Below are positions 1,969-7,227 of a stretch of DNA of 64,000 nt, in pieces. The number at the start of each line of letters is the position of its first letter. The first letter of the stretch is position 1. This stretch comes from Scytalidium lignicola. Its lineage: Eukaryota > Ascomycota > Leotiomycetes. The notes beneath the pieces are model-generated. The model saw only the letters and a program-made list of their open reading frames with translations. It was not told the origin of the DNA and made no database searches. The position numbers and the translations under genes were made by a program. The DNA lies in NCBI GenBank assembly GCA_002812745.2, contig NCSJ02000080.1:83089-147088 (forward strand), in the 5' to 3' direction.

Positions 1969-2946
1969 CTAAGGTAAATTCTCTAGCTCGACTTCTCCTC
2001 CAATCCTGCTAAAGGCTCCAAAGTCAGTACGATGGTTATCAGCCCAATCTGAAATTGCTTGAAATTCCCGGCATTTATGACGGGTATTAAAGTCCGGAGT
2101 TGGATGTTCTAGACCACGAACCCAGTTATATGTCAGGATGGTTACATCGGCTGTACACATCAAGTTGGTTCGGAGTATTTCAATACAATGATCTAAGTGG
2201 TCACGGGCATCTTCAGCTGGTTGTTTGAAGACGTCTTCTTCCTTATAATAGTCAAGGTAACTATGTTTGCGCAGTAGATTCTGGTTAGTCGTTAGTTTTG
2301 AGGAGCGCTGGTAGATGGGGGACAGGGGTAGTTCTTACAAGGCAGTGTAATTGGTGGAAAACTTCTAGAGAGGCAACATAGCCATGGCCATGCTCGGGAG
2401 GATATCTTGCAGCATCAGAGGTCTTCCCGATCTGCTTCAGCTGAATTTCCGTGATAGGAAAAAGAGCTACATCTGCGGGAAGCGGTTAGTGAGATCCGTA
2501 TTGGAACTATGTTGAGGCTGATGATCAGCAGATGCTTACCTGTAATCCTCTCCCATGCAGCGTCTACAGCAGGTGACGGTGGCCCCCTGTATATTGATTG
2601 ATGATAAAAGCTTCCATTAAAGTAAAAGCTGCTGTATTTCACGGCCTCCAGCGCCGGCGCTAAACAAGCTCACTGCATTAGAGACCTGACTGTGACGATA
2701 ATGGGGGAAAGATCATGTAAAGGACTTGCAGTAATTAGAGAGATGGTTTACACATGACTGATCGTTAGGGGATCGAAACCCGGCAGACCCAAAGAGTACT
2801 GCAGAAAGCACAAGAATAGCAAGAGATTGGAATATAATCCAGCAATTTGTCCAAGACGAACAGAACGGCCTCATGGTTTGGGGTTTTAGAACTTGACGAT
2901 TAGCAATAAAAGCAACCGTCTCATCATTATCTCCAAGTGAGCTCAT
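1969..2946 (-). CDS. UstYa-family (DUF3328) oxidase, four exons
   Basis: I model four exons on the minus strand: 2946–2754, 2659–2540, 2472–2339 and 2280–1969, giving 252 residues. The sequence shows a cytosolic N-terminus, one membrane helix at about residues 36–56, then the family block GPPSPAVDAAWERIT. Two metal-type motifs follow, HQLHC (144–148) and HLDHC (177–181), and the C-terminus has HKCREF. This order is characteristic of UstYa/DUF3328 proteins, which in ustiloxin, phomopsin and asperipin pathways carry out oxidative cyclisation of ribosomal peptides. All key residues are present, so it is probably functional. The first intron uses a weak GTGTAA donor, and the exon 1/2 junction is the least certain. 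Neighbours are two related HxxHC proteins and a small secreted peptide gene. The family is clear; the substrate is unknown. Confidence 0.85.
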
Positions 2947-3231
2947 TGTGGGTGTTTCTAACGTTGGTATGCTTGTTGAGTCTGGATAGTGTAGCAGATT
3001 GACTACAAGGAGCCTACCGGAGGTGCAGAGCGAAGCGTCCTTATTAAATCCGTATCACTATATTAGCTTTAATCAGTAGGTATAACTGGATTTATTTTCG
3101 CGACAATGCGATATTACAGAGCAGGTCAATATAGGCAACGCCGATTCAAAATTGCAAGGAGTATATTGAGTCTATCATGCAGAGTAAGCGCTGTCATTTA
3201 CTATCTAACAGCCCAACACCACCCAAACGAC

Positions 3232-3879
3232 CTAGCACCACCCAAATAAAGAATAGCCCCTAGTCTGGATCCTGTCACGAGTCGGAGATGCATTGGTAAC
3301 ATTCAGGAGGAAGTACATGCAGTGCTCAACGTGCTCGTAACGCCCCGTTATGCGGTCTACACGGTCTCCATACCTCAGTGCATGCATGTATCTCAGATTT
3401 AAGAATACGCAGTGAGCTGCGTGTTCTCCTTCAGTCGTGTACGAATCGTTTTCCGCATCAGTCTCCGTTGCCAAAACTGACAAGTCTGAGACAATTCTTT
3501 GGCTATCCTTATCCTCCCAGTACTTCCAGTCTCCGCTTCGGAGGTATTCCTCATTATAGGTCTTAGGACATGGTTCCGGCAGCCATGTTTTAGATAACTC
3601 ATCCCAATGGCAATCTTTGCTTATGGCTTCTGAAATGGAGTGGCCGCAGTCGATCCTTGACTGTGTAGTCTGCTGTTGAGGCATTGGTAATGGCAGTTGC
3701 TTCATGGCCTCGAGACGGAGGAAGTTGGTGACAATGAGGGCAACAGTCAAAAGAACTGTAATCCCAGAGAGGACATAGAGAGCGATCCGCGTGTTGGACT
3801 TATCATCCCGGATATCAGGAGACTGGCTGTTTTCGTCTTTTGGTAACGGCGAATACGTTGATTCTTCGGTAATTGCCAT
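3232..3879 (-). CDS. Small membrane protein with paired HxxHC motifs (UstYa-related family), copy 1
   Basis: A single exon of 215 codons from the ATG at 3879. An in-frame extension to 3948 exists but starts with GTG, and the shorter start matches the usual short acidic N-terminus before a helix. It shows one membrane segment (about residues 31–55), then the block DCGHSISEAISKDCHWDEL followed by TWLPEPC, then HAAHC (153–157) and HVEHC (183–187). This CG..EA...C...WLP..C plus double HxxHC layout is a widespread but poorly characterised fungal family. From memory, members are found beside phomopsin-type RiPP genes. The twin HxxHC motif is shared with UstYa proteins and suggests a metal-dependent, membrane-anchored enzyme. 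It is transcribed divergently from the peptide gene at 4336. Function is inferred, not known. Confidence 0.7.
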   Translation of the reverse strand: MAITEESTYSPLPKDENSQSPDIRDDKSNTRIALYVLSGITVLLTVALIVTNFLRLEAMKQLPLPMPQQQTTQSRIDCGHSISEAISKDCHWDELSKTWLPEPCPKTYNEEYLRSGDWKYWEDKDSQRIVSDLSVLATETDAENDSYTTEGEHAAHCVFLNLRYMHALRYGDRVDRITGRYEHVEHCMYFLLNVTNASPTRDRIQTRGYSLFGWC

Positions 3880-4335
3880 TCTGTTTGTAGAGTAAAGATG
3901 CAAATAGAAGAAAATAATAGCAAAGATAATAGAATCAAACTTCACCACAAGAACAGTTTAACTCGCCAGGTTATAAGACACGTAACTGAGGACTATAAAA
4001 TAGCCCGGATCATTTAATTAAATATGCGGTCAGCTGAGCCTAAGCACCCGAGGTCGCCGGTAGGACTTTCTCTTCTTAGATTTATATGGTCATCTTTGTG
4101 TTATCATAAAGATTGAATAAACAAAAGATAGCTAAGGCACCTCTATCTTATTACGGAAGGTGAATAGGGAAAATAGAGCTAGGCTAGAGCATAAGAGCAG
4201 CTATAAATTCTCTCAAGCAACCTCCCAATGCTTGAAAAAGTACATATCAAACATTCAAAGCTTGTCTCATACACTCAAATACTTCTTTACCACCCCCTAC
4301 ATCTACACCATTAAGAACAACCACAATATTACAAA
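3880..4335. promoter_or_regulatory. Shared divergent promoter between HxxHC gene and peptide gene
   Basis: The two start codons lie 456 bases apart on opposite strands, so this interval must hold both promoters. On the plus strand TATAAAT lies at 4202–4208, about 130 bases before the peptide ATG, followed by a pyrimidine/A-rich leader ending in the context acaaaATG. Such head-to-head placement is often associated with co-regulation. No known operator motif is recognised. Confidence 0.5.
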
Positions 4336-4967
4336 ATGAAGCTTTTTCTGTCCATCCAGGCACTTGTCCTCTTGGTAGCCATGGCAGCTGCTGCCCCAAC
4401 TGCTGAGCCAAACCCTGATTCTAACATTGTGCGTTTTTATTAATCAATTACTATGACTCCTTACCGGTTTTAAAAATATCATAATGCTAACTATTATTTT
4501 TACATCTTAGGAAGCGGTATGTTTCATTTTATGCATTAAAAGCTTTGAATATATTAGTGAAGTTACTGATGTTATTACACTCGTAGCGTGACCCGAAGTG
4601 TGTAAGTAATCATATTTCCCTTGAAATAGCTAGAAGAAAACTGACAATCATTTTAGCTGTAAGTTATAAATGATTCAGAAAATCTGAGAGACTTTGCTCT
4701 GTTATGTTAGGCTAATGATATATCCCTTCACCTTATAAAGATTTGTAAGTGATTTATTTTTAAAATTCTTTGCAGCCATGTTACGAGTTTTGCTAATTCC
4801 AGCTAGGATGTAAGTTTTTACCTTGTTTTTTGTTTGTATAAGCGCTTTCCTCGGCAGACTTTTAACTCCCTGGTACTGGAACTAGTATGTAAGTATACTT
4901 CTTGGAAGTCTTCCAACTTAACCCCCCTCTGATGCTTCCGTAGTACAAAGGTGTTGGCAATTGCTAG
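4336..4967 (+). CDS. Tiny secreted peptide precursor built from micro-exons
   Basis: Exon 1 (4336–4428) encodes a signal peptide, MKLFLSIQALVLLVAMAAAA, and an acidic, proline-rich stretch (APTAEPNPDSNI). My best model then has exons 4511–4516, 4587–4601, 4657–4658, 4741–4744, 4807–4809, 4886–4888 and 4944–4967, for 49 residues ending EARDPKC-LFDY-YKGVGNC and a TAG. All seven introns are 55–82 nt with GT–AG ends. Five in a row have GTAAGT donors, and each has a plausible branch site (CTAAC, CTGAT, CTGAC, CTAAT, CTAAT, TTAAC, TTAAC). Two cysteines enclose a ten-residue Tyr-rich loop. The gene lies between UstYa-type genes, which suggests a RiPP-like precursor; a small secreted effector is the alternative. 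Exon 1 and the RDPKC exon are secure. The 2–4 nt exons are the most parsimonious reading but need transcript evidence. I do not recognise a family. Confidence 0.55.
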
Positions 4968-6465
4968 TTCAGTCAATATTATCCTACAACTTTGCAGAAA
5001 TGCTCTGGGACAACAATATGATAGGTCTGAATTATGCAATAAGCAGAGAAGTGTAGAGGTGGAAGCTAAAGAAGATTGTAGGAGATCAGCGGTGCATGAA
5101 CATACTCACTCATTAGTAAAACTTGAGTTCTTTATAGCTGTCAAATTATATTACAGAGCTTGAAATATCACATTCATTTAACCTAAAACTAAGTTACATT
5201 GTTGCGAGAATATTTCATAGAAAATGACCTTTCGCTTTTTAGTATACTAATAAACCGTTAGTCTTTGTTAACACTAATCGGCCTAGAACTTTAAAGCGTA
5301 AGGCAATCTAAGTTTGGAGCACAAGAGGTTCATGTATACACGGCTTCCTCATAGAGTATTATTACTTATCAATATAGCTACGGTAAGGACGGAAATTTAA
5401 CAACGAAATTCAAAGTATGCAAAGAAGACCTTCGTTCGTGATTTAAAAATACAATTAGGCACTTTTAGTTAATATATTTCAACTATGTCAGGAAATAATT
5501 TGCGTCAAGCATTTGATAGCAGGAATACTTTTGTACAAGGGCTGAGACACAAGTACAGTGCTTTAATTTGAATAAAACTTATTAGTTAANTTTTTTTTTA
5601 CATTTCTTTTTTACTTCTAATTCTGCATACTTAATTAGGAATTTACGAATAACCTTTCTTGTAACTAGAAATCAACATTATGTAGTTTATATATACCTTA
5701 ATACAAATCTAATGAGTTACCACATCCTTCCTTCAGGCCCACTCTTATTTTCTCTGATTACGAACAAGAATAAGAAAAGGAAGGTTACGCCGAGAAACTG
5801 ACCATTCACAGGTTAGTGGCAGTGATGGATTTCACAGTATGCATTAATTAATCACTGTCTGACAGTGCATTATCTCATCGAGCCCCAGAATACCAAGCTC
5901 GTTAGACCAAAATCATATGTACGTAAGTACGTACGTACGGAGGTACGTCCGATCAGCGGTTAAGTAAGGTAATAGGACTAGTAGGGGGTGCACGGTACTC
6001 AACTGAATTAAGTAGTAAAGTCGCAAGCTGTGCCTACAGTATACGGCCACAGGAGGGGCCACCCTGACTAGTGCTGCAGTATTATCTTACTTCGCCTCTG
6101 TACATCCGTAAGGATACCATCCACTCGAAATTCTTCTTTCATCCTAAAATGCCGGTAATTATAAGTTAACAGAGTGAAAAGCGGCTTCAGGTGGCTTCTG
6201 GGGCCTCAAGGGCTTCCTTACTCAATCTGAGTACCTCCCGTATCTCACACGGGTCGTTCCCAGAAAGCTGGTATACCTCCCCCTACAACCGTGTTCCTGT
6301 TTTTTTACCAGTAATCTACTCAAACAATCAAACAGCCCATTGTTATTCCAGCCCTCAACGGCAAAGGCCATAAAGAAGCCTTCTTTAGATATTCCGTTTA
6401 TCTCATTCTAGAACTCTGTGGTTTTAAATTCAAAGACATTGCAAATCCCATCCAACTCTATCTAA
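4968..6465. other. AT-rich spacer between peptide gene and second HxxHC gene
   Basis: No gene is supported. It contains a degenerate ACGT-type microsatellite at 5919–5950 and one N at about 5590. The last few hundred bases are the presumed promoter and leader of the gene starting at 6466. Confidence 0.5.
5919..5950. repeat. Imperfect (TACG)n microsatellite
   Basis: Short run of GTACGTA-type units, interrupted twice (AAGTACG, GGAGGTACG). It is self-complementary, so it could form a hairpin. No function is implied. Confidence 0.6.
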
Positions 6466-7227
6466 ATGTGAGTATGCATACTCCAAATTCTTTTGCTGAT
6501 AAAGTTGATTGTTTACTGTATCACGATTAGGAAGTTTGATTCACTGTTGTCAACTATCTCTAGTCTTCTCGGTGCGAAATCACATGAGAAAGGGACGCCA
6601 TTGTTGCAGGAAGAAGAATTAGAGGCTTTAGATGACCATAAATCAGAAAAGCCTCCAAAGCAAGCCTGGCTATTACTGTTGCATCTTACGACAATATGCC
6701 TAGCCATGTGGGGATTATTCAACCTCTGCCAGCTGGCATGGTCACACCTGACGGCTAAAAGTCCATCTTGCTACTGTGGGAAAACTCCTACAGAAGCAAT
6801 TACGCGGGGATGTAAATACGACCAGATCGCAGCAGCCTGGCTACCTGATCATTGTCGAGATGATGAATTGATACAAATGTTTGAACAAATAGGTCAGACT
6901 AATGGCCATAACTGGACCTACTACAACTATCCTGAATTAACAAAACAATTAAGTATCGCGGAAGTCTCGATGCTCGGTGCAAATGACGGCAAAGTTGGCG
7001 AAGATGTGAGTGTTGTGTACACCACGGAAGACTGGCACATGTCACATTGTTTGTATTTGTGGTGGAAGCTCTCTAGGACTGTGTCAACAGGGACAATTAT
7101 GTCACCCAGATATAACCATGAAGGCCATGTCAAACACTGTATAACTGCAGTTTGGGGCAAATTGAGGAACTTAACTGATCTTCAGAATGAAATGTCCATT
7201 ACTGGTGTTTTTATGTTTCCTGAATAA
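6466..7227 (+). CDS. Small membrane protein with paired HxxHC motifs, copy 2, split start codon
   Basis: The long frame has no ATG near its start. A 63-nt GT–AG intron (6468–6530, GTGAGT donor, GATTAG acceptor) joins the AT at 6466–6467 to a G, creating ATG-AAG-TTT and a 232-residue protein. It has one membrane helix (about residues 47–70), the block YCGKTPTEAITRGCKYDQI followed by AWLPDHC, and the motifs HMSHC (170–174) and HVKHC (200–204). It is a diverged paralogue of the gene at 3232–3879, with the same layout and length, facing away from it on the other side of the peptide gene. It is probably a membrane-anchored, metal-dependent modifying enzyme, by analogy with UstYa proteins. The family is fairly sure; the exact start and function are not. 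Confidence 0.65.

What the first reader, a model, noticed from the sequence alone, without database searches (positions are those of the whole stretch)
4336..4967. Secreted peptide gene apparently assembled from exons as small as 2–4 nt
Within 632 bases there are seven GT–AG intervals of 55–82 nt, five with consecutive perfect GTAAGT donors, each with a branch-like CTRAY or TTAAC motif. The only exons left between them are 93, 6, 15, 2, 4, 3, 3 and 24 nt. Joined, they stay in frame and end YKGVGNC-stop. Exons of 2–4 nt are extraordinary in fungi. The same genome has a 15-nt exon in PRE3, so small exons are spliced here.
Basis: partly seen in the sequence, partly recalled or inferred. Interest (0 to 1): 0.85.

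Follow-up and report, generated by a model that had tools for sequence, protein, structure and literature searches.

The report
RiPP-like peptide gene with codon-sized exons
Beside UstYa-type peptide-modifying enzymes, the fungus Scytalidium lignicola appears to carry a secreted-peptide gene whose last residues are spliced together from exons of only 2-4 bases, and laccase genes in the same genome indicate that 3-base exons really are spliced there.

Summary
An intron model trained on 20 homology-supported laccase introns ranks this the longest micro-exon chain in the sequence examined; 30 random 64-kb sequences never exceed three linked introns. "In frame" is weak evidence (about 11 codons tested), and the last acceptor is ambiguous.

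New here: (1) The genome is Scytalidium lignicola. Three of five laccase-type genes inspected have two consecutive 3-nt exons at one place. Including them restores the spacing seen in 96 of 119 homologues; NCBI's model skips them. So 3-nt exons are very probably spliced in this fungus. (2) The peptide gene lies among UstYa/UstYa-like genes and an acyltransferase. Six precursor-like genes lie near other UstYa loci, none with micro-exons.

Best reading: a single-core precursor of a UstYa-modified secreted peptide, its core built from micro-exons. No transcript data were available; exact exons, product and function are inferred.

The parts
4336..4428 (+). exon 1: signal peptide and short propeptide (MKLFLSIQALVLLVAMAAAAPTAEPNPDSNI)
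   Evidence: signal peptide judged by eye
4429..4510 (+). intron 1, 82 nt, GTGCGT...TTAG, branch CTAAC
4511..4516 (+). exon 2, 6 nt (EA)
4517..4586 (+). intron 2, 70 nt, GTATGT...GTAG, branch CTGAT
4587..4601 (+). exon 3, 15 nt (RDPKC)
4602..4656 (+). intron 3, 55 nt, GTAAGT...TTAG, branch CTGAC
4657..4658 (+). exon 4, 2 nt (CT)
4659..4740 (+). intron 4, 82 nt, GTAAGT...AAAG, branch CTAAT (weakest acceptor)
4741..4744 (+). exon 5, 4 nt (ATTT)
4745..4806 (+). intron 5, 62 nt, GTAAGT...CTAG; alternative acceptor ends at 4802
4807..4809 (+). exon 6, 3 nt (GAT, Asp)
4810..4885 (+). intron 6, 76 nt, GTAAGT...CTAG, branch TTAAC
4886..4888 (+). exon 7, 3 nt (TAT, Tyr)
4889..4943 (+). intron 7, 55 nt, GTAAGT...GTAG; rival acceptors end at 4967 and 4972
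4944..4967 (+). exon 8: YKGVGNC and stop
4202..4207 (+). TATAAA, possible TATA box 129 nt before the end of the 5' flank (ATG at 4336)
   Evidence: read; inference
3235..3948 (-). divergent UstYa-like oxidase frame, double HXXHC, divergently transcribed from the peptide
1969..2946 (-). UstYa (PF11807) gene in pieces; part of NCBI chimeric model B7463_g5111
6493..7227 (+). second divergent UstYa-like oxidase frame, double HXXHC

Best explanation
The locus is a real secreted-peptide gene that serves as precursor of a UstYa-modified fungal peptide (RiPP-like). Shown by sequence: a signal-peptide-like exon, then a chain of introns with good donors, branch motifs and acceptors enclosing exons of 6, 15, 2, 4, 3 and 3 nt, in a cluster with two UstYa genes, two divergent UstYa-like genes and an acyltransferase. 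Shown by comparison: tandem 3-nt exons at one position in three laccase genes of the same genome. Inferred: introns are recognised one by one (intron definition) and removed stepwise, because 2-4 nt is too short for both splice sites of an exon to be bound at once; the perfect GTAAGT donors make up for the missing exon sequence. The precursor enters the secretory pathway and its C-terminal part (about RDPKC-LF-D-Y-YKGVGNC, with Tyr-Tyr and two Cys) is oxidised by the UstYa-type enzymes and perhaps acylated. GAT, TAT and the pair CT+ATTT are each multiples of 3 nt, so skipping them would keep the frame and variant cores are possible.
For: Exact signals and chain statistics. The seven introns score 10.3-19.2, within the 7.4-20.7 of the 20 training introns. 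Tandem 3-nt exons in three laccase genes (C44 ATA/ATG, C157 ATA/ACG, C225 ATG/AAA); including them gives the 11-residue span found in 96 of 119 homologues, while NCBI's model of the C44 gene has 9. PF11807 at E 5e-27 and 5e-22 in the cluster; double HXXHC in both UstYa-like frames; profile match of UstYa-like to UstYa over both motifs (probability 83%, E 9e-6); Acyl_transf_3 (E 4e-11). Six precursor-like genes beside UstYa loci on C340, C365, C188, C577, C635 and C287, five of them with KR.
Against: No RNA. No relative of the peptide found (a search that needs shared 5-residue words) and no second copy in the genome. No KR or RR in the predicted peptide. One AAAG acceptor; ambiguous last acceptor. 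Reading on through exon 1 gives a 35-residue unspliced product. None of the six other precursor-like genes seen has micro-exons. No genome-wide excess of the bare micro-exon pattern. The laccase evidence is for 3-nt exons only, not for 2- or 4-nt ones.
Confidence: 0.62

Rival explanations
1. Ordinary gene with three introns: after the RDPKC exon the message runs on from 4657 (CTG TAA), so the peptide ends RDPKCL, and the later GTAAGT sites are unused or act in the 3' UTR.
For: A stop lies right after exon 4 if intron 4 is retained; no 2-nt exon was validated here.
Against: The later four donors all have AG 2-4 nt upstream and branch motifs, a chain far beyond chance; several introns after a stop would be odd for a stable message (general knowledge).
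Confidence: 0.15
2. Real micro-exon gene, but ATTT is skipped or another last acceptor is used, so the C-terminus differs; skipping ATTT opens a frame running to 5163.
For: Weights: 148-nt intron skipping ATTT 0.07, last acceptors 4967 at 0.24 and 4972 at 0.50; a 70-aa frame at 4951-5163.
Confidence: 0.08
3. Real micro-exon gene for a small secreted peptide that is not a UstYa substrate.
For: No KR site, no repeat; two Cys could form a plain disulfide loop (inference).
Against: Placed between UstYa-type genes, like precursor-like genes elsewhere in this genome.
Confidence: 0.1
4. Chance or decayed sequence: a signal-peptide frame followed by accidental splice-like motifs.
For: No homologue, no pattern excess genome-wide.
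Against: 0.03 such donor clusters expected in the genome before AG and branch positions are counted; random sequence reaches 3 linked introns at most.
Confidence: 0.05

Closest known systems
Dikaritins (UstYa/DUF3328-dependent fungal RiPPs such as ustiloxin, phomopsin, asperipin-2a; passages of PMC12048977)
   Same: Secreted precursor near UstYa-type enzymes with double HXXHC; Tyr in the candidate core.
   Different: No repeated cores, no KR site, micro-exon structure, product unknown.
Plant microexons of 1-15 nt (passages of PMC8831610)
   Same: Exons down to 1 nt, adjacent microexons in one transcript, strong GTRAGT donors at a 1-nt exon, reliance on flanking introns, missed by annotation.
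   Different: Conserved genes with RNA-seq and RT-PCR proof; here a peptide without known relatives, four consecutive exons of 2-4 nt and no RNA.
Schistosome micro-exon genes (start of abstract of PMC10526429 in a search listing: short exons 3-81 bp, introns up to 5 kbp)
   Same: Secreted protein assembled from tiny exons.
   Different: Unrelated organism; introns here are 55-82 nt.
Trichoderma virens Xlr2 microexon (abstract and passages of PMC11121469)
   Same: Microexon in a filamentous fungus.
   Different: A single switch-like microexon in a transcription factor gene.
Tandem 3-nt exons in S. lignicola laccase genes (seen here)
   Same: Consecutive 3-nt exons between 50-64 nt introns with GTAAGT-like donors.
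   Different: Conserved enzyme, two such exons, none of 2 or 4 nt.

Membership tests
Dikaritin-type RiPP | UstYa/DUF3328 enzyme with double HXXHC in the cluster | tested here: met
   for UstYa#1 only one exon was looked at and it shows one HC
Dikaritin-type RiPP | small secreted precursor close to UstYa genes | tested here: met
   peptide ATG is 388 nt from the 5' end of the UstYa-like frame; signal peptide by eye, no predictor run
Dikaritin-type RiPP | repeated core peptides | tested here: not met
   one C-terminal core
Dikaritin-type RiPP | Kex2 KR sites | tested here: not met
   no KR or RR in 49 residues
Dikaritin-type RiPP | oxidatively cyclised product | not testable with these tools
   needs metabolite analysis
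UstYa family (two divergent neighbours) | Pfam PF11807 above gathering score | tested here: not met
   10.7 bits against 25 for 3232-3948, no match for 6493-7227
UstYa family (two divergent neighbours) | double HXXHC and profile similarity to UstYa | tested here: met
Introner-like or tandem-duplicated introns | introns alike in sequence | tested here: not met
   mean pairwise score 16.8, shuffles 16.8
Micro-exon gene | most exons very small and spliced in mRNA | tested here: inconclusive
   anatomy fits; no transcript

The most novel reading that the evidence does not exclude
A hidden class of fungal RiPP precursors whose core is assembled almost codon by codon from 2-4 nt exons, so that skipping or keeping GAT, TAT and CT+ATTT could make up to eight in-frame cores from one gene. 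Such genes are invisible to gene callers and could account for UstYa clusters in which no precursor has been found.
Probability: 0.2. Interest if true: 0.92.

Novelty: new variant of a known kind. Interest (0 to 1): 0.75.

Why it matters
UstYa clusters without a recognisable precursor are a stated puzzle (lichen RiPP survey PMC12048977, passages read, considers a missing or single-core precursor). A precursor cut into 2-4 nt exons would escape standard gene callers, so this locus makes one answer testable by a single cDNA. The laccase comparison shows the same blind spot in a conserved enzyme: NCBI's models of the genes on C44 and C225 drop two residues encoded by 3-nt exons. The locus would also test how a spliceosome that pairs sites across introns handles four successive exons of 2-4 nt, and whether exon skipping edits a peptide natural product residue by residue.

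Tried and rejected
Tandem duplication of one intron: rejected, the introns are not alike. RNA structure as explanation: no Rfam match in 3900-6500, folding z-score -1.4. A relative of the peptide elsewhere: none. Micro-exons in other precursor-like genes near UstYa loci: none seen in six; two signal-peptide screens by regular expression cover only the stretches held. A 31-nt intron 4745-4775 giving PCYEFC was dropped as too short (by reading). A relative cluster may sit on the metagenome contig of 2,665 bases that encodes P0002 (49% identical to the UstYa-like protein); scans of that collection were capped at 0, so it was not fetched. The genome collection for relatives held none for this genome. 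Literature searches on fungal microexons, 3-nt exons, laccase microexons and UstYa precursors listed no report of tandem 3-nt exons in fungi; most subscription papers are not held.

Full report
What is there. Exons of 93, 6, 15, 2, 4, 3, 3 and 24 nt alternate with introns of 82, 70, 55, 82, 62, 76 and 55 nt, and GTAAGT stands at 4602, 4659, 4745, 4810 and 4889. The join is MKLFLSIQALVLLVAMAAAAPTAEPNPDSNIEARDPKCLFDYYKGVGNC. Staying in frame is weak evidence, since only about 11 codons follow the RDPKC exon and any frame soon meets a stop.

Is it more than chance? From the window's own rate, five GTAAGT in about 290 nt are expected 0.03 times in the genome on both strands; AG lies 2-4 nt upstream of 4 of 34 other GTAAGT in the window. 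I trained donor and acceptor matrices on 20 introns of three laccase genes, none from this locus. With a threshold of 14 the locus forms a chain of six linked introns (total 104), the longest among 509,642 bases counted on both strands, overlapping loci counted repeatedly, 24 loci left out beforehand. The next are two laccase loci (chain of 4; they are in the training set, so their rank is not independent) and C540 (3). Thirty Markov 64-kb sequences gave at most 3. Against this, the bare pattern has no clear genome-wide excess: 66 against 56, 82 against 87, 32 against 28, 18 against 38 and 30 against 23. What is special is the linkage of hits and the added branch and acceptor signals.

Which exons? 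So the micro-exons up to TAT are better supported than the last exon.

Does this fungus splice 3-nt exons? A pattern hit on C44 proved to be a laccase-type multicopper oxidase gene. Its N-terminal coding sequence needs the exons ATA (L065 1554-1556) and ATG (1615-1617) between introns of 53, 58 and 50 nt, giving NNTDV-Y-N-D-PPYTGVIR. The best 120 of 2,859 matching proteins were aligned: of 119 with both flanks, 96 have exactly the 11-residue span of this model, 10 have 9, 4 have 10 and 9 have other lengths; NCBI's model of this gene (P0003) has 9, as if both 3-nt exons were skipped. In solved structures the Aspergillus-type multicopper oxidase 5lwx aligns without a gap at these residues (there is a one-residue gap a few positions earlier). 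Of four further laccase-type loci read, C157 has ATA and ACG and C225 has ATG and AAA at the same place and phase; C111 and C122 have no micro-exon there. This is comparative evidence, not RNA, but it makes splicing of tandem 3-nt exons in this genome very probable. It says nothing direct about 2- and 4-nt exons.

What is the gene for? The cluster holds PF11807 matches at window 2032-2747 and, outside, at C643:81979-82422, an Acyl_transf_3 piece at C643:79723-80499, and two UstYa-like frames at 3235-3948 and 6493-7227. These two fall below the Pfam cut-off but have two HXXHC motifs each and match UstYa as profiles over both motifs (83%, E 9e-6); 13 matches of this divergent group occur in the genome, the two in the window included. 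DAHP synthase on the left and glycogen debranching enzyme on the right look like the borders. Near other UstYa loci I saw six precursor-like genes: repeats with KR on C340, C365, C188 and C635, repeats with KER/KQR on C287, and a single core with KR on C577. The peptide sits where a precursor is expected, but has neither repeat nor KR. It therefore works like a single-core UstYa substrate by position; membership in the dikaritins is not claimed.

How it most likely works. Inferred: intron-by-intron recognition with perfect GTAAGT donors, stepwise removal, secretion, oxidation of the Tyr-rich C-terminal part. Plant work reports that exons of 1-15 nt are often missed, that adjacent microexons occur, and that a 1-nt exon has GTRAGT donors (PMC8831610, passages). 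A Trichoderma paper states that functional microexons had not been described in filamentous fungi before it (PMC11121469, abstract and passages). A lichen survey notes UstYa clusters lacking a recognisable repeated precursor and considers a single core (PMC12048977, passages).

Side finding. On C38 a tandem array of 68-bp intron-like units is separated by 3-nt slots. In 23 aligned units the slots carry 12 transversions in 69 cells, all other columns 7 in 1,489. C540 has a short array of related-looking units after a protein start, and C121 holds a mutated copy of the C38 region. Whether these are spliced is unknown.

Limits. No RNA, no relative of the peptide, no product. The model is confident that a chain of micro-exons exists, less so about ATTT and the last exon, and inferential about function.

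Noticed in passing
L065 1132-1854 (C44), L082 (C157), L083 (C225): Three laccase-type genes with two consecutive 3-nt exons at the same place (ATA/ATG, ATA/ACG, ATG/AAA); NCBI's models miss them, and 10 of 119 aligned homologues have the same 9-residue span.
   Followed up: yes
C38:9334-10980 minus strand (L050, L064): Tandem 68-bp intron-like units separated by 3-nt slots that vary by transversion (12 of 69 cells) while the rest hardly does (7 of 1,489), just before an open frame with a CxxC-rich start; possibly single-codon exons. Pfam finds no family in that frame.
   Followed up: partly
L076 2050-1650 minus strand (C540): A protein start followed by 70-bp intron-like units enclosing CGT, GAA, CCA and GAT, near ankyrin-type repeats on the other strand.
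   Followed up: partly
L073 (C121): A copy of the C38 array region with many C-to-T and G-to-A changes, as expected from repeat-induced point mutation.
   Followed up: no
L009 2537, L011 328, L016 394 minus, L044 2926, L008 3202, L023 2923: Six precursor-like secreted peptide genes beside other UstYa loci, mostly with repeated cores and KR sites.
   Followed up: partly
window 1969-3948: NCBI model B7463_g5111 appears to fuse two neighbouring genes, a UstYa-like and a UstYa gene.
   Followed up: partly
C111:343827-343955: Two linked hits of the 4-nt micro-exon pattern.
   Followed up: no
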